Position numbers and translations under genes: made by a program. 37,523 nucleotides of DNA from Gloeomargarita lithophora Alchichica-D10 (lineage in GTDB: Bacteria > Cyanobacteriota > Cyanobacteriia > Gloeomargaritales > Gloeomargaritaceae): NCBI RefSeq assembly GCF_001870225.1, contig NZ_CP017675.1, positions 1,733,623 through 1,771,145 on the forward strand, in the 5' to 3' direction. The notes beneath the pieces were generated by a model. That model had not been told where the DNA came from. It saw nothing but the letters and a program-made list of their open reading frames with translations, and did not search any database. Shown here piece by piece: positions 16,014 through 29,840 of this stretch (position 1 is its first letter; each line of letters opens with the position of its first letter).

Positions 16014-19000
16014 CTAAGCCACCTTAAACTGCGCCACGTTTTCCTGGAGTTCAGCCGCCACCCCCAGCAGATGGGTAAAGGAGTCCGCCACCCCCACGGA
16101 TTGCTGGGAGGTTTGGTTGGCAATCCCCGCCACGTCCTGCATGGTGCGGCTGACCACCGCCGAGGTCTGGGACTGGGCTTGGGCGGCCTGGGCAATTTCC
16201 CCCACCAGGGTGCTGATCTGGCTGGTGACCGTGGCAATTTGGCTCAACCGCTGACGGGCTTCGGCCACCAGATGGGTTCCCACCACCACCTGCTCCGTGC
16301 CCGCCTCCATCGCCGCCACCACCTCGTTGGTTTCCGCTTGGATTTCTTCTACTAACTGTTCAATTTCCCCCGTCGCACTGGCGGACTGTTGCGCCAAGGA
16401 ACGCACCTCCTCCGCCACCACCGCAAACCCCCGCCCCTCTTCCCCCGCCCGGGCGGCTTCAATGGCCGCATTCAAGGCCAGCAAATTGGTTTGGGCGGCA
16501 AAATTGCTGATCAAATTCACCACCCGCGAGATTTTTTGGGAGGCTTCCCCCAGGCGTTTCACCTTTTTGGCCGTGGCCGCCACCGTGTCCCGAATGGCGG
16601 AAATCCCCGCCACCGTGCGGTTCATGGCCTCATCCCCCTCCTGGACGGTTTGGTTGGCCTGCTGGACTTGCAGTTCGGCACCGTGGGCATTGGCCGCCAC
16701 CTGCTGAATGGACTGCACCATCTGCTGAATTTGATCCAGCGCCGCCCCGATCGCCTGCGCCTGCCGTGCCGCCTCCGAAGATAGGGCATTCACCGGTGGG
16801 GCACTCCGTTGTGCCGTGTCCGCCACCGCCTGCGCCGCCGTTTGCACCTGTTGCACGATCTGTTGCAAACTCTCCACAATGGCGTTGAAAAAGTCCGCCA
16901 CCGTGCCCATCTCCCCGGAAGTCACCCGGGCGCGCACGGTCAAATCCCCCTTGAATGCCCCCTCGATGTCCCCCAAAAACTGCGCCAACTGGCCTTGGAT
17001 GGCCTCCCGCTGGTGCTTTTGTTCTTCAGAAACCGCCTCTGCTTTTTGCCGGGACTGCTCCACCTGCTCCAGCAAAATCGCCTGATCCAGGGCAAACCCC
17101 ACCTGGGCGGCCACCTGGCGCAGGAAATTAATCTCCGTCTCCTGCCAGGTGCGGGGGCCACTACACTGGTGGGCGATCAGCAACCCCAACAATTTGCCCT
17201 CGCCAAGGATGGGGGCGACCAAATTGGCCTTCACCGCAAAAGGCTCCAACTGTTGCAAATGGCACTCGGTCAGCCCAGCGTTGTAAATATCCGGGGTGGC
17301 CTGCACCCGCCCCCGCCGGTATTTTTCCACATAGTTGTCGGCGAAACAGGGGTCGGCAATCTGTGCCCCCAACGCCCTGGGCCACGCCCCAGCGACGGAT
17401 TCCGCCATCACGGTGCCTTTCCAGGTCGCGTCAAATAAATACACCACACAGCGATCCGATTGCAGGGCTTTCCGCACCTCTTGCACGGTGGCATTGTAGA
17501 TGGCTGTACGCTGCAAACTTTGGCGAATTTTTGAGGTAATATCATTCACCAATTGGGCTTGGGTAGCGGCCAATTCCTGTTGTTGACGCAGGGTTTCCTG
17601 CTGTTCTAAGGCCACCGCCTGATCCAGGGCAAACCCCACCTGTACCGCCACTTTGCCCAGGAAATCAATTTCCAATTCTGTCCAATCCCGGGGGGCATCG
17701 CATTGGTGGGCAATCAATAGACCATAAAGGGTATTTCCTAACAGGATGGGAGCCACCAAATTGGCCTTGACCGCAAAGGGTTCCAACTGTTGCAAATGAC
17801 AGGGGGTTAAGCCCGCATGGTAAATATCCGGGGTCGCTTTCACCCGTCCGGTGCGGTACTGCTCCACATATTTATCGGCAAAACAGGGGTCAGCAATCAA
17901 CGCCCCCAACGCCGGGGGATAACCCGGAGTTAAGGCTTCCGCCATGACGGTGCCCTGCCATTTTTTATCGAATAAATACACCACGCATCGGTCGGATTTG
18001 AGGGCATTTTTGACTTCCCAAACCGTGGTTTGATAAATGGTGGTACGTTCCAGGGATTCCCGGATTTTAGAAGTGATTCGGTTCAGGAGTTGCTCCTGTT
18101 CTGCTTTGGCTTTTTGTTGGGTGAGCAAATTGGCTTGATCCAGGGCAAATCCCACCTGCACTGCCACTTGTTTGATCAATTCAATTTCCCCATTTTGCCA
18201 CCGCCGCGGGCTACTACACTGGTGGGCAATCAGCAGGCCAAACAGTTGATTTCCTAATAGGATGGGAGCCACTAAATTGGCTTTCACCGCAAAGGGTTCC
18301 AACTGTTGTAAATGGCATTCCGTCAACCCCGCTCGGTAAATGTCGGACGTGGCCTGTACCCGTCCCCGTTGGTATTTTTCCACATAGTTGTCCGCAAAAC
18401 AGGGGTCAGCAATCTGCGCCCCCAACGCCCGCGGCCAGCCGGGAGCCACGGATTCTGCCATCACCGTCCCTTTCCAGGTGGCATCAAATAAATACACCAC
18501 ACAGCGGTCGCTTTCCAGGGCTTCGCGCATCTGTTGGACGGTGGTTTGAAAAATGGCCTGCCGGTCGAGGGACTGGCGAATCCGCAGGGTAATATCGTTG
18601 AGTAATTGGGCTAAATTGGCTTTGGTTTCTTGGGTTTGGCGCAGTTCTTCTTGCCGTTCTAGGGCAATCGCTTGATCCAGGGCAAATCCCATTTGTAACG
18701 CCACTTGCCGCGCCAGTTCAATTTCCCCGCTTTGCCATTCCCGGGTGCTACTACATTGGTGGTTGATGAGTAACCCCAATAGTTTGCCTTCCGCCAAAAT
18801 GGGAGCCACCAAATTGGCTTTTACCTGAAAAGGTTCCAGTTGTTGCAAATGGCATTCCGTTAAGCCCGCATTGTGAATGTCTGCGGTCGGTTTCACGCGC
18901 CCCGCCTGGTAGGATTCCACGTATCTATCCGCAAAACAGGGGTCAGCAATTTGCGCCCCCAACGCCTTGGGGAAATTACTATGCACCGATTCGGCCACCA

Positions 19001-20141
19001 CCGTTCCCTGCCATTTTTCATCAAACAAATACACCACGCAGCGGTCGGATTTTAAGCCGTTACGCAATTCCCGCACCGTATGGTTATAAATCGTTTGCCG
19101 GTTGAGGGATTCCCGCATTTTGGCAATGATTTGATTCAATTGGGTCGCCTGGGTCATCTGGGTCTGTTGCACCTGCCATAATTGCGCCTGATCCAGGGCA
19201 AACCCGACTTGTACGGCCACCTGCGCCAAAAATTCCTGCTCCCCGGCGGACCACTCCCGCGCTTCGCCGCACTGGTGGGCAATCAACAACCCCAGCAAAT
19301 TCCCTTCCACCAGAATCGGGGTGACCAGATTGGCCTTCACCTGAAACCGCTCCAGGATTTGGATGTGACAATTTTTTAAGCCCGCCTGGTAAATATCCGC
19401 CGTTGCCTGCACCCGCCCCGCCTGGTACTGGGTGACGTATTCCCCCCGAAAACAGGGGTCGTCAATTTTTTCGCTCAACGCCTGCACCCAGCCCCGCCCC
19501 ACGGATTCCGCCACCACCGTTCCCACCCAATCGGGGGCAAAGCGATAAACCACCGCCCGGTCACAGAGCAAAATTTGTCGCACTTCGCGTACCGCCGTGT
19601 CCATCACGGTTTGCGGGTCTTGAGTTTGGCGCAGTTGCCGGACTAATTCGCGAAATTTTTGGGTGCGTTGGCTTTCGCTCTGCTGTTGCTCCTGGAGGGT
19701 TTGGAGTTGCAGTGCCAGGGCGTTTAACTCCTGTCCCAGGTGGGTAAGCTCATCCTCCCCCGGCAAAGATACCCGTGCCTGCCATTCCCCCCGCCGCAGG
19801 CGTTGCGCCATCTGCAGTAGTAACAATGCCGGTTTGGTGAACCCCTGCCCCAATAAGGCCGCCGCCGCCAACCCAATTAACAATCCCACCAAAGCCGCCG
19901 CCCCCCCCGCCAGGGTTTTCTGCTGCACCTGGGGAGTAGATTCCTGGGGTAATAGGGCGTTGTAGGTCACGACCCCGGCCACCGCCCCACACAGTCCGGT
20001 AATCATGGCCAAGGCCACCAGCCGCTGACCCAGGGAACGCACCGGGGGAGCGGGTTCCGGGTGGGTGAGCGCGGGAGAACCGTTGGCGGCTATGGTTTCG
20101 GCGGGGGTGGCAACCTGGGGCTTCGTTGGCGTGCGGGTCAT
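16014..20141 (-). CDS. Methyl-accepting photoreceptor-like protein with five DXCF-type GAF domains (PixJ/PtxD-like)
   Basis: This is a 1375-residue membrane chemoreceptor, probably for phototaxis or type IV pilus control. It has two membrane helices (about 40-62 and 78-100), HAMP (about 100-150), five tandem GAF domains (about 165-1025), a second HAMP-like segment (about 1045-1100), and an MCP signalling domain. The MCP hairpin tip is [20 protein letters not shown] (about 1219-1238). Each GAF keeps a DPCF cysteine and a CH cysteine exactly 28 residues later (C230/C258, C402/C430, C581/C609, C753/C781, C932/C960). These are the two bilin-linking positions of DXCF cyanobacteriochromes such as TePixJ. 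The DPCF positions are 172, 179, 172 and 179 residues apart. GAF3 and GAF5 are nearly identical, suggesting recent duplication. A cheW-like gene lies upstream. Many related cyanobacterial GAFs do not bind bilin, so chromophorylation is inferred. Confidence 0.9.
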
Positions 20142-20354: not shown

Positions 20355-20825
20355 TTAATTTGATGACAAAGACTGGACAATACCCTGCCCATCCAAGACC
20401 AAAAAGACCGGCTCCTGCGCCCAGTAACCCCGCAAACATTGCGCCAGGGCTGGGGTCATTTCCGTCCCTGGGGGAGACTGCAATTGCGCCAGGGGACACC
20501 GAAACATCTGCCCCACCTGGGCTACCACCAGACCCAGGCGTTGTTTGTCCTGGGCAAGAATTAGTACATTGTGATTTAATTGATTGGGAAACAATTCCAG
20601 CAGGGAGCCAAACCCCAACCAGTGGGCTAAATCCAGCAACCACAGCACTTCCCCCCGCCAGTTGGCGACCCCCATCACCGCCGGGGGCATATCCGGAATT
20701 GCCACAATTTGTTGCGTAGGGATGGGCAGGACTTCCAAGCATTCGTGGGCGGGAAGCAGGGCGGGCAGGGTGGGGGAAAGCTGAAAACTCAAGCACAGCA
20801 ATTCGTCGGCGGTGGTGGCGGGCAT
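20355..20825 (-). CDS. CheW-like adaptor (PixI/PilI type)
   Basis: This 156-residue single CheW domain couples MCP receptors to a CheA-type kinase. The pattern ECLEVLPIPTQQIVAIPDMPPAVMGVANWRGEVLWLLDLAHWLG is the standard first half of the fold, with the conserved NWRG turn, followed by LGLVVAQVGQMFRC. It precedes the GAF-MCP gene on the same strand by 213 bases, matching the pixI-pixJ order of cyanobacterial phototaxis operons. No CheA (PixL) or CheY-like (PixG/PixH) gene is present here. The start is the ATG at 20825. The 213-base gap holds a GGGGCAA/TTGCCCC stem without a T-run but no gene. Confidence 0.88.
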   Translation of the reverse strand: MPATTADELLCLSFQLSPTLPALLPAHECLEVLPIPTQQIVAIPDMPPAVMGVANWRGEVLWLLDLAHWLGFGSLLELFPNQLNHNVLILAQDKQRLGLVVAQVGQMFRCPLAQLQSPPGTEMTPALAQCLRGYWAQEPVFLVLDGQGIVQSLSSN

Positions 20826-20992: not shown

Positions 20993-21205
20993 TTAAGCAT
21001 CCAAATCACTAGGGCGAAGTCCGGCATCTTTCAAAATTGCTCTCAGGGTGCCGAGGGGTAGGTCACGATTACCATGCACCGGAATAGATAAAATCACTTG
21101 CACTTCATTTTTTGTATAAATATGATGACTCCCAGTAATTCGCTTCAAATTCCAGCCATGACGTTCCAATATTTTACACAAAGCTCGACCAGAAATAGAC
21201 TTCAT
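20993..21205 (-). CDS. hicA: HicA-family mRNA interferase toxin
   Basis: The 70-residue product has the small double-stranded-RNA-binding-like HicA fold. SGRALCKILERHGWNLKRITGSHHIYTK holds the catalytic His in the GSHH motif, and ILSIPVHGNRDLPLGTLRAILKDAGL is the typical C-terminal half. HicA cleaves mRNA when not bound by HicB. Its ATG overlaps the hicB stop by 4 bases (ATGA), giving tight translational coupling with antitoxin first. Length is complete for the family and the catalytic His is intact, so it is likely active. Confidence 0.93.
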   Translation of the reverse strand: MKSISGRALCKILERHGWNLKRITGSHHIYTKNEVQVILSIPVHGNRDLPLGTLRAILKDAGLRPSDLDA

Positions 21206-21402
21206 ACTGATAATTCTACGACTTCTGATTCTGGATTAGGTTCATGGCTTTGACTCGCCACTTCCAACCACCCCCGAACTGCATCTTTGAGCATTTCCAT
21301 CAGTTCTTCTTTTGTTTTTCCCCAAGTATGACATCCTGGCAATGCTGGTATCGAACCACACCAAACCCCATCTTCTTGCCAAATAAATGCTTTGATTTTC
21401 AT
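21202..21402 (-). CDS. hicB: HicB-family antitoxin
   Basis: The 66-residue product has the partly degraded RNase H-like HicB fold: IKAFIWQEDGVWCGSIPALPGCHTWGKTKEELMEMLKDAVRGWLE is the characteristic pattern (GSIPALPGC, then TKEEL). It lacks a separate C-terminal DNA-binding domain, as in short HicB proteins. An AGGGAG ribosome site precedes the ATG at 21402. A 101-bp palindromic element ends 46 bases upstream; its terminal repeat reads outward toward hicB as TTGCTATAGT, an extended -10-like sequence. Confidence 0.92.
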   Translation of the reverse strand: MKIKAFIWQEDGVWCGSIPALPGCHTWGKTKEELMEMLKDAVRGWLEVASQSHEPNPESEVVELSV

Positions 21403-27351: not shown

Positions 27352-28932
27352 CTAATGAAGCGCACCGGAATTGCCGTCTGGTGCTGTGTTTTCTTGAGCG
27401 TTTATAATTCTTTCAATCAAATTATTGCTTAACTGAATTGCTAACTTTTCATCAGTTTTTGCAATTTCAATTACGTTATCTACCTCTCTATTATCAATCA
27501 TTTCAAATTGACTTTGGTTCGGGCATAAACTATCATTTAAGTCACTCGGTTCAAATTTATCTAAACTGTCCCCATAACTTCTTTTGTTAGTTTTTATTAT
27601 CTCTTGACCTATATCGCTAATTAAATAAACGAACAATTTATTTGTGAGTTGTTCATAAAAAATATTTGGATAAAAAGAATGAAAGCATGTGAAGTTAATT
27701 GCTGTTGTAAAATTTCTTATTACTTTTAGACGGCCTCTGTTGAATACTCCAAACAATATTGGAGCAGGCTTTCTATGTTCAATTTTGAACCAAGGATTCC
27801 TCATTCTTGTAAGATATCTCTCGTGGTATCCTGATGTTTCGCCTTGTTTTATGTAATTACGAATTTCTTGCTTTTTCTGTTCTTTTACATCCAAACAATG
27901 GACTGGTTTATCTGCATTATGTAGTATATTAAAATCATGCTCAATAAATACCGCTTTGCGTATTTGAGAACTTTTTGTAATACACTTGCAAATATTGTTA
28001 TCATTCAACTTCCATTTTTCGATTGTTGATTTTGCTAAAGCAAAAAATTCATTTGCACCAGTAGCAATACCTCTTGTAACTGTTCCATACAGAGACAAAT
28101 TACAGAAGCCATTTGGAGCTTTTTGTGCAGAGAATAATGATGCAATAATGGGTGTCCATTTTTTGTTATATGGTAAATCGGAGGGTTCGATTTCTTGTTG
28201 ATAGACTTTACTGATATCAGAAATATTATCTATTTCATCATTTCTTTTGATTTGTAAAATTTTAATGGTTTCTTTTATCCCGTCATTTTTACAAAGAAGC
28301 ACACAAACAGTTGTCGTTGCATCTGGGAATATTTCTTTTTCATTTGAAAAGATTATTATTTGCTTCAATAAATGACTTTCAAGGAGACTCTTTTTAATTT
28401 CTTTCCCATATCCAGTATTAAAAAACTCAAAAGGCATAATATAAGCCAAATTACCATTCACTTTAAGTTCTTTTAAAGACTTCACAAGGAATATAGAAGA
28501 AATATTAGAGTAACCGATAAGTTTTTTTCCTATTTTTTCTTCGATTTTTGGCAATATATCATGGCGTTTAAGAAATTTCTGAAACCTCATATATGGTGGA
28601 TTACAAATGATACCGTCAAATTTTTCAACTTCAACTTCCAGATAGTCACTATTGATAACTCTCAAATAAGGACTTTCATCATTATGATTAGCAAATTCCA
28701 ATATATTTTTATCAATTTCATAACCAACAAAATTTATCTGATTTCTTAAAGATATTCTTATTGCTTCATCATAAAAAACACCCAAACCAAATGCAGGGTC
28801 TAACACCCTCTCTGGATTGTCTTTCAAAATCCACTTTACCATGAGACGGGCAACGGGAGGGGGTGTGAAAAATTGACCGTAATCCTTCCTATAATTAAGA
28901 GGAGTTTCTTCTATATATCTTAACTCATACAT
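27352..28932 (-). CDS. Type II N6-adenine DNA methyltransferase
   Basis: The 526-residue gamma-class (TaqI-like) methyltransferase protects the host from its cognate endonuclease. YGQFFTPPPVARLMV and DPAFGLGVF (about 45-53) are motifs X and I for S-adenosylmethionine binding; ICNPPYMRF is catalytic motif IV (NPPY about 111-114). The C-terminal half is probably the target-recognition domain. The ATG at 28932 sits 9 bases after AAGGG and overlaps the endonuclease stop (ATGTATGA); another ATG at 28941 is too close to the ribosome site. The gene is far AT-richer than the flanking genes, a sign of transfer. The recognition sequence is unknown. With the endonuclease broken it would be a solitary methyltransferase. 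Confidence 0.9.
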   Translation of the reverse strand: MYELRYIEETPLNYRKDYGQFFTPPPVARLMVKWILKDNPERVLDPAFGLGVFYDEAIRISLRNQINFVGYEIDKNILEFANHNDESPYLRVINSDYLEVEVEKFDGIICNPPYMRFQKFLKRHDILPKIEEKIGKKLIGYSNISSIFLVKSLKELKVNGNLAYIMPFEFFNTGYGKEIKKSLLESHLLKQIIIFSNEKEIFPDATTTVCVLLCKNDGIKETIKILQIKRNDEIDNISDISKVYQQEIEPSDLPYNKKWTPIIASLFSAQKAPNGFCNLSLYGTVTRGIATGANEFFALAKSTIEKWKLNDNNICKCITKSSQIRKAVFIEHDFNILHNADKPVHCLDVKEQKKQEIRNYIKQGETSGYHERYLTRMRNPWFKIEHRKPAPILFGVFNRGRLKVIRNFTTAINFTCFHSFYPNIFYEQLTNKLFVYLISDIGQEIIKTNKRSYGDSLDKFEPSDLNDSLCPNQSQFEMIDNREVDNVIEIAKTDEKLAIQLSNNLIERIINAQENTAPDGNSGALH

Positions 28933-29840
28933 CAATAACATCCCTTATGAATATTTCATTATCAAGATAGCCCTTGCCGCCTTCAAAAGTGACATAAAAA
29001 AGCAGACGCCCTCGGTCTAACTCTTTCATGGCGGATTTGTGCTCAGGCATATCAATTTTCCCAAGCACTTCTTTCCCAATTTGTACATTTATCTTAATTG
29101 TAGTTTTGCCTTGATTTTTATCATCTCTCTCTATTGAAAAATTATTTCCATCATTGTTATCGTTTGAAACGAATGTCAAAATATTCTTAAAGGATATTAT
29201 ATATGCCCTATCAAAAAATACTTGTAGATAGAAATGCTTGACATTATATTGCTGAATCCATCGGTTGACTAAGGCAATATCTTCCATTTTTGGTGTAATG
29301 CTTAAATAATCACGTTTGTGTAGTACTTCTATATTTTCTTTTATGCCTTTTAGTAATTTCCTTAGATTTATTAACTCTTGTGTTGATGACCACGATGGAC
29401 AACGAAAGTCTAATTCTCTAAAGGTGTCATCCGTAGCATTTGAAATTAGATTGTAAATTGTCTCGTTTTTTCGCTTTAGTAGATCACTAAGATCGGTGCC
29501 TATTATGGCGTTTCTAATTTCGTGGCATTTATCAATCGCCTGTCGTTGTCTGTTGTTCATGAATACAGCATATTTGCCTGCCAAGTAAGAACTTGATCTT
29601 ACTTCAAGCGCAGCCACCGCACTTCTTATATGTTCACTATTTTCAATATTGAACAGCGAAATAATCACGAGAATATTCATTGATTGCCTTAAAGACGATT
29701 TTTTCAGCCCAATCACCCTGTTCCTTGTTTGTAAGAAATTCAGAGTAAGCCGTGCTTGGAGGACTTCCAGTCATTTGTATTTCAGTATTAATCTCAAATG
29801 GTAATTGCTTTATCAGGTTCAGAATATCGTCTTTGTACAT
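28925..29840 (-). pseudogene. Frameshifted type II restriction endonuclease
   Basis: Two overlapping frames make one protein. The first begins at the ATG at 29840 (strong AAGGAG ribosome site) and runs through KEQGDWAEKIVFKAINEYSRDYFAVQY to a TGA at about 29643. The second continues with ENSEHIRSAVAALEVRSSSY to 28925. Skipping one T near 29645 joins them into a 304-residue enzyme, and the total length (916 bases) is exactly one base over a multiple of three. ALEVRSSS resembles the E-x-K/R-type catalytic core of PD-(D/E)xK nucleases. The family is not certain; AccI-like is a guess. It could be a true mutation or a sequencing error. It is AT-rich and overlaps the methyltransferase start. Confidence 0.75.

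What the first reader, a model, noticed from the sequence alone, without database searches (positions are those of the whole stretch)
16014..20141. Chemoreceptor with five tandem DXCF-type cyanobacteriochrome-like GAF domains
All five GAFs keep DPCF and CH cysteines exactly 28 residues apart, the spacing I recall for the two bilin-linking cysteines (C494/C522) of TePixJ. If all bind bilin, this is a multi-chromophore blue/green photoreceptor feeding one signalling domain, comparable to the seven-GAF PtxD of Nostoc punctiforme.
Basis: partly seen in the sequence, partly recalled or inferred. Interest (0 to 1): 0.75.

Follow-up and report, generated by a model that had tools for sequence, protein, structure and literature searches.

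The report
Five-sensor PixJ-type light receptor
This cyanobacterial gene encodes a membrane light receptor of the known PixJ phototaxis family, in which five pigment-binding sensor domains in a row very probably all detect blue/green light and feed one chemotaxis-type output; such receptors are known, but this lineage seems to have built its five-fold array independently.

Summary
The ORF at 16014-20141 (-) encodes 1375 aa: two predicted membrane helices, HAMP, five GAF domains, a HAMP-like segment and an MCP signalling domain. All five GAFs carry DPCF...CH with cysteines exactly 28 residues apart. They are the only five exact matches to D-x-C-F-x26-C-H in the 3.05-Mb genome.

Each GAF is a DXCF cyanobacteriochrome by sequence. 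TePixJ is the best PDB match (GAF1, 3 and 4 searched), and the five lie outside the clade of PixJ GAFs that lost the canonical cysteine. GAF1 alone lacks the Q526 equivalent. The same genome holds haem oxygenase, PcyA, an adjacent CheW, an unlinked PixL-like CheA and PilT, but no CheR.

It is best read as PixJ, a blue/green phototaxis receptor. The closest precedent is five-GAF PixJSe of Synechococcus elongatus rather than seven-GAF PtxD. Among 390 genomes surveyed, all-DXCF arrays of five or more occur only in Gloeomargaritaceae and an S. elongatus-like genus, and the tree supports independent expansion.

Side finding: linkers between neighbouring GAFs are 77 or 84 residues in 203 of 222 cases, one heptad apart. 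AlphaFold2 draws one as a continuous 52-residue helix. Bilin binding, colour and phototaxis are inferred, not shown.

The parts
16014..20141 (-). pixJ-like gene, 1375 aa: TM-TM-HAMP-GAFx5-HAMP-like-MCP
   Evidence: TM helices read from the sequence
20355..20825 (-). CheW (PixI-like), 156 aa, directly upstream of pixJ on the same strand
   Evidence: Pfam PF01584 E 1.6e-21; 34% to S. elongatus-like PixI; linked to pixJ also in L009/L097
19842..20021 (-). two predicted membrane helices (about residues 41-65 and 78-100) with a short loop between
   Evidence: hydrophobic stretches read from the translation; inference
19701..19841 (-). HAMP domain, residues 101-147
   Evidence: Pfam PF00672 E 3.6e-5, just under its cut-off
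19173..19634 (-). GAF1, residues 170-323; C230/C258; isoleucine at the position of TePixJ Q526
18654..19118 (-). GAF2, residues 342-496; C402/C430
18117..18581 (-). GAF3, residues 521-675; C581/C609
17601..18065 (-). GAF4, residues 693-847; C753/C781
17064..17528 (-). GAF5, residues 872-1026; C932/C960
18576..18731 (-). continuous 52-residue helix joining GAF2 to GAF3 (about residues 471-522), the 84-aa linker class
   Evidence: AlphaFold2 model of GAF2-GAF3, mean pLDDT 93
16848..16973 (-). second HAMP-like segment (about residues 1057-1098: [22 protein letters not shown]) between GAF5 and MCP
   Evidence: read from the sequence; inference, no Pfam hit
16125..16667 (-). MCP signalling domain, residues 1159-1339, with [12 protein letters not shown] tip
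   Evidence: Pfam PF00015 E 1e-43

Best explanation
It is a PixJ-type cyanobacteriochrome chemoreceptor of a Gloeomargarita species. In each of five tandem GAF domains the canonical cysteine (CH) covalently holds a phycocyanobilin, probably isomerised to phycoviolobilin, and the DPCF cysteine makes and breaks a second thioether at C10, so that each GAF toggles between a blue-absorbing dark state and a green-absorbing photoproduct. The GAFs sit in series on a helical spine of the receptor dimer, between HAMP and the MCP hairpin. Their combined state sets the activity of the PixL CheA through PixI (CheW), and phosphorylated CheY/PATAN regulators then bias the type IV pili, giving phototaxis. Shown here: sequence, architecture, family placement, conservation and presence of partner genes. 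Inferred: bilin binding, colours, dimeric coiled coil, coupling to this CheA, and phototaxis.
For: Exact DPCF/CH 28-residue spacing in all five GAFs. Best PDB match is TePixJ for the whole-protein search (best stretch GAF3) and for GAF1 and GAF4 alone (E about 1e-43 to 5e-51). D492, C494, F495, C522, H523 and N535 are conserved in all five and Q526 in GAF2-5 (positions from PMC6955287). The five lie outside the clade of PixJ GAFs that kept the DXCF-position cysteine but lost the canonical one. dN/dS is about 0.04-0.13 for each GAF against the closer relatives. A PcyA-family gene and haem oxygenase are present. CheW lies upstream. The orphan CheA's best match in three Pix-bearing genomes lies next to their pixJ and it is the best own-genome match to PixL. 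PilT is present. S. [quoted passage not shown]
Against: No spectroscopy or motility data. In Synechocystis PixJ1 only the second of two GAFs binds bilin (PMC5812497). GAF1 lacks the Q526 equivalent. Residue 499 is Y, not W as in TePixJ. The pix genes are scattered in this genome, so pairing with this CheA is by homology only, and the alignment to PixL is only 33% identical. CheR is absent, so any adaptation cannot be by canonical methylation.
Confidence: 0.78

Rival explanations
1. Only some of the five GAFs carry bilin; the others, GAF1 first, are structural spacers or colour-shifted modules that no longer form the second linkage.
For: Synechocystis PixJ1 GAF1 does not bind (PMC5812497). GAF1 branches apart from GAF2-5 and has I for Q526.
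Against: Non-binding-type GAF1s of other PixJs have lost the canonical cysteine (CD, CE, CK classes), while all five here keep both cysteines and H523 across Gloeomargaritaceae under purifying selection. Bilin-type CC GAFs lacking Q526 also occur in other arrays (G380 g1, G167 g3/g4), so its loss need not mean loss of binding.
Confidence: 0.15
2. The receptor does sense blue/green light, but its output is not phototaxis: for example piliation, aggregation or gene expression through another Che pathway.
For: The pix operon is broken up here: pixJ has only cheW beside it, and cdsA on the other side. The genome has several other CheA/MCP clusters. I found no held paper on phototaxis in Gloeomargarita.
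Against: A PixL-like CheA, PixI-like CheW and PilT are retained.
Confidence: 0.15
3. Ordinary MCP GAF domains that bind no bilin or bind another ligand; the cysteine pattern is coincidental.
For: GAF is a generic ligand-binding fold.
Against: Five out of five exact motifs, TePixJ as best structural relative, pocket residues conserved.
Confidence: 0.02

Closest known systems
PixJSe (Synpcc7942_0858) of Synechococcus elongatus UTEX 3055, Yang et al. 2018 PNAS (paper not held; cited through PMC10781874; five-GAF count recalled, and seen here in G401/L099)
   Same: TM-HAMP-multiple DXCF GAFs-MCP; five GAFs all with DPCF...CH at 28; linked to blue/green phototaxis; 48% identical over the aligned GAF-MCP part to the six-GAF homologue in G036
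   Different: S. elongatus-like array has only 77-aa linkers and W at 499; pixG-H-I-J-L are one gene cluster there; its GAFs form a separate clade, so the two arrays expanded independently
TePixJ (Thermosynechococcus), PDB 3vv4, 4fof, 4glq, 6p58
   Same: DXCF GAF with the same two cysteines at 28; PVB chromophore; MCP output; GAF2-GAF3 model matches it at rmsd 0.8-1.4 A over single GAFs, 53-56% identity
   Different: One bilin GAF, long extracytoplasmic region ahead of it (L078); W499 and H498 rather than Y and variable residues
SyPixJ1 (TaxD1) of Synechocystis PCC 6803
   Same: Two TM, GAFs, MCP; blue/green; Che-like partners PixG/H/I/L (PMC5812497)
   Different: Two GAFs, only the second binds bilin
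PtxD (NpF2164) of Nostoc punctiforme
   Same: Multi-GAF cyanobacteriochrome MCP for phototaxis
   Different: Seven GAFs, mixed colour classes, only two with second-cysteine linkage (PMC5812497); here all five are the DXCF class

Membership tests
DXCF cyanobacteriochrome GAF | GAF fold closest to characterised CBCR GAFs | tested here: met
   sequence; model of GAF2-GAF3
DXCF cyanobacteriochrome GAF | Canonical Cys followed by His, plus Cys in D-X-C-F, 28 residues apart in TePixJ | tested here: met
   All five GAFs
DXCF cyanobacteriochrome GAF | Chromophore-pocket residues D492, H523, Q526, N535 of TePixJ | tested here: inconclusive
   All four in GAF2-5; GAF1 has I for Q526
DXCF cyanobacteriochrome GAF | Covalent bilin, PCB-to-PVB isomerisation, second thioether at C10 | not testable with these tools
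   Only the means to make PCB (haem oxygenase, PcyA family) was found:
PixJ phototaxis receptor | Membrane-anchored HAMP-GAF(n)-MCP architecture | tested here: met
   TM helices by inspection only
PixJ phototaxis receptor | Encoded with pixG-pixH-pixI-pixL | tested here: not met
   Only a CheW is adjacent; the PixL-like CheA is unlinked at G000:C1 about 1.07 Mb; a PixG was not assigned. Gene linkage is a usual, not a strictly defining, feature of the family
PixJ phototaxis receptor | Needed for direction of phototaxis | not testable with these tools
   Needs a mutant
PtxD-type mixed-colour array | Several different CBCR colour classes in one array | tested here: not met
   All five GAFs are DXCF type; functional colours unknown

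The most novel reading that the evidence does not exclude
A homogeneous array of five blue/green photoswitches, built independently of the S. elongatus one, in which the sensors are kept in helical register by linkers that change only in whole heptads, so that five (ten per dimer) chromophores pull on one coiled coil and turn a blue:green ratio into a graded or cooperative output.
Probability: 0.3. Interest if true: 0.6.

Novelty: new member of a known kind. Interest (0 to 1): 0.4.

Why it matters
If right, two unrelated cyanobacterial lineages independently stacked five or more near-equivalent blue/green switches on one chemoreceptor, which suggests that number of chromophores is itself selected, for light capture, ratio sensing or cooperativity. 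Gloeomargarita is, to my knowledge, the closest living relative of plastids. The heptad-quantised spacing gives a simple, testable rule for how tandem GAF photoreceptors pass their signal and how such arrays could be engineered.

Tried and rejected
Common origin of the Gloeomargarita and S. elongatus arrays: not supported; S. elongatus GAFs form one clade (98/89) and Gloeomargarita GAF2-5 group with the 8 DXCF GAFs of four other genomes (99/88); no AU test of a joint clade was run. PtxD as the closest relative: rejected on GAF types. Viral origin or spread: no relative in viral contigs. The Yang 2018, Narikawa 2013 and Cornilescu papers were not held, so TePixJ pocket residues were taken from PMC6955287. 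Promoter/terminator scan gave no more than shuffles. NCBIfam gave no equivalog over its cut-off for PixJ, CheW or the CheA.

Full report
Identity of the window. The window is G000:C1:1733623-1771145 of a single-contig 3,049,282-base genome. The nearest named relative is Gloeomargaritales cyanobacterium VI4D9, 90% identical over the whole protein.

Observation. Pairwise identity between the GAFs is 47-76%, with GAF1 the outlier at 47-52%. The genome has exactly five matches to the D-x-C-F-x26-C-H DNA pattern, 0 for the reversed control, and the adjacent-pair search places them in this gene.

Are they cyanobacteriochrome GAFs? The best PDB sequences for the whole protein and for GAF1 and GAF4 searched alone are TePixJ. 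Aligned to TePixJ's own gene (L078), all five keep D492, C494, F495, C522, H523 and N535; GAF2-5 keep Q526, GAF1 has I; W499 is Y in all five; H498 is variable. D492, H523, Q526 and N535 are pocket residues, and H498 and W499 contact the B-ring propionate, in the TePixJ crystal work (PMC6955287). PixJ orthologues elsewhere often have a first GAF that has C at the DXCF position but D, E or K in place of the canonical cysteine; those form their own clade (98% in the quick tree) and the five here are outside it. Each of the five is under purifying selection between Gloeomargaritaceae: dN/dS 0.04-0.13 against the three closer genomes where synonymous change is not saturated. Against G403, GAF1 gives 0.26 with an oddly low synonymous divergence, which I did not pursue.

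Means to make the pigment. One PcyA-family gene (E 2e-76) and one haem oxygenase (3e-86) are in the genome.

Partners. A CheW (PixI-like) lies directly upstream. Beside the six-GAF pixJ of an S. elongatus-like genome (G036, L105) are a PATAN-type response regulator, a CheY, a CheW and a CheA. In the window's genome the best match to that PixL over its length is an orphan 1470-aa CheA at about 1.07 Mb (L071; E 2e-155, 33%), carrying two Hpt domains and a receiver domain. Searched back, its best match in G401, G036 and G089 is the CheA beside their pixJ. So the pix set is dispersed here, while pixJ-cdsA linkage is conserved in the six Gloeomargarita loci that reach that far (L009 and L097, and L010 and L104, are the same genomes seen twice). 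PilT is present. CheR is absent, so methylation-based adaptation of the classical type is unlikely.

How unusual is the array? In 390 cyanobacterial-class genomes, 57 have at least one adjacent DXCF-GAF pair. Four or more adjacent pairs (five or more GAFs) occur only in seven Gloeomargarita genomes (G000, G085, G403, G411, G428, G437, G445), with G420 showing three plus a GAF cut by the contig end, and in genus g12 (G401: 5 GAFs; G036: 6 GAFs). No other listed genome has more than two pairs. G401's chromosome length (2,696,255) equals, from memory, that of S. elongatus PCC 6301, so this array would be PixJSe. Sampling is one genome per species and by exact pattern, so variants are missed.

Origin. 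In a careful tree of 88 GAFs, Gloeomargarita GAF2-5 group with the DXCF pairs of four other genomes (99/88); S. elongatus-like GAFs are one clade (98/89); Gloeomargarita GAF1 lies apart, with G197 and G443 GAFs (97/92). In many genomes neighbouring GAFs are each other's closest relatives, so tandem duplication of DXCF GAFs has recurred. In Gloeomargarita GAF1-4 (and, less firmly, GAF5) are orthologous between species, so the array was fixed before those species split.

Spacing rule. Measured between fixed conserved positions of neighbouring GAFs, the linker is 77 (124 cases) or 84 (79 cases) in 203 of 222 distinct pairs; other values are 73, 78, 86, 90 and 92. The Gloeomargarita protein alternates 77, 84, 77, 84. 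On a tree of 299 GAFs the labels need at least 12 changes between 77 and 84 and at least 9 between heptad and non-heptad lengths; the pairs are not independent, so I attach no p-value. Lengths inside the GAF do not show this: 91, 93-99, 101 and longer. The distance from the last GAF to the MCP tip is 223, 230, 237 or 244 in 25 of 26 cases. AlphaFold2 draws the GAF2-GAF3 linker as one 52-residue helix, mean pLDDT 93. Whole-heptad linker differences are known in phytochrome-diguanylate cyclases (PMC9587094); I did not find them described for cyanobacteriochrome GAF arrays in the searches made, which is weak evidence of novelty.

Mechanism. By analogy with TePixJ (PMC6955287) and PixJ1 (PMC5812497), blue light isomerises the bilin, breaks the DPCF thioether and gives a green-absorbing state. 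Five such switches per chain would act on one helical spine between HAMP and the MCP hairpin and change PixL activity. Which state activates PixL, and whether the five act additively, is unknown.

Verdict. A real, well-described feature and an informative new member of the PixJ family, not a new kind of system. The independent five-fold arrays and the heptad rule are the parts worth following.

Noticed in passing
window 16014-20141 and loci L043-L111: Linkers between neighbouring GAFs in PixJ-type arrays are 77 or 84 aa in 203 of 222 distinct pairs, one heptad apart, and the last GAF lies 223, 230, 237 or 244 aa from the MCP tip in 25 of 26.
   Followed up: partly
L077/L105 (G036): An S. elongatus-like genome carries a six-fold all-DXCF PixJ, one GAF more than in the related G401; two of its GAFs (g3, g4) are nearly identical, suggesting recent array growth.
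   Followed up: partly
L071:6520-10932 (+): Orphan PixL-like CheA of 1470 aa with two Hpt domains, unlinked to pixJ.
   Followed up: yes
whole genome G000: No CheR (PF01739) although there are several CheA, CheW and MCP genes.
   Followed up: no
L005, L006: Two other CBCR-like GAFs in the genome: one with DHCL...CH rather than DXCF...CH, one with DHSF...CH, i.e. second cysteine lost.
   Followed up: no
window 27352-29716 (-): Eco57I/N6-type DNA methylase next to an AccI-family restriction endonuclease whose ORF, as called, matches only the C-terminal two thirds of the profile.
   Followed up: no
window about 20993-21402 (-): Two small overlapping ORFs that read like a HicB/HicA toxin-antitoxin pair, upstream of cheW-pixJ (read; not tested by profile).
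   Followed up: no
L094 GAF1 against window GAF1: GAF1 has much lower synonymous divergence (pS 0.46) than GAF2-5 (0.65-0.75) between G000 and G403, with higher dN/dS (0.26); possible recombination or different constraint.
   Followed up: no
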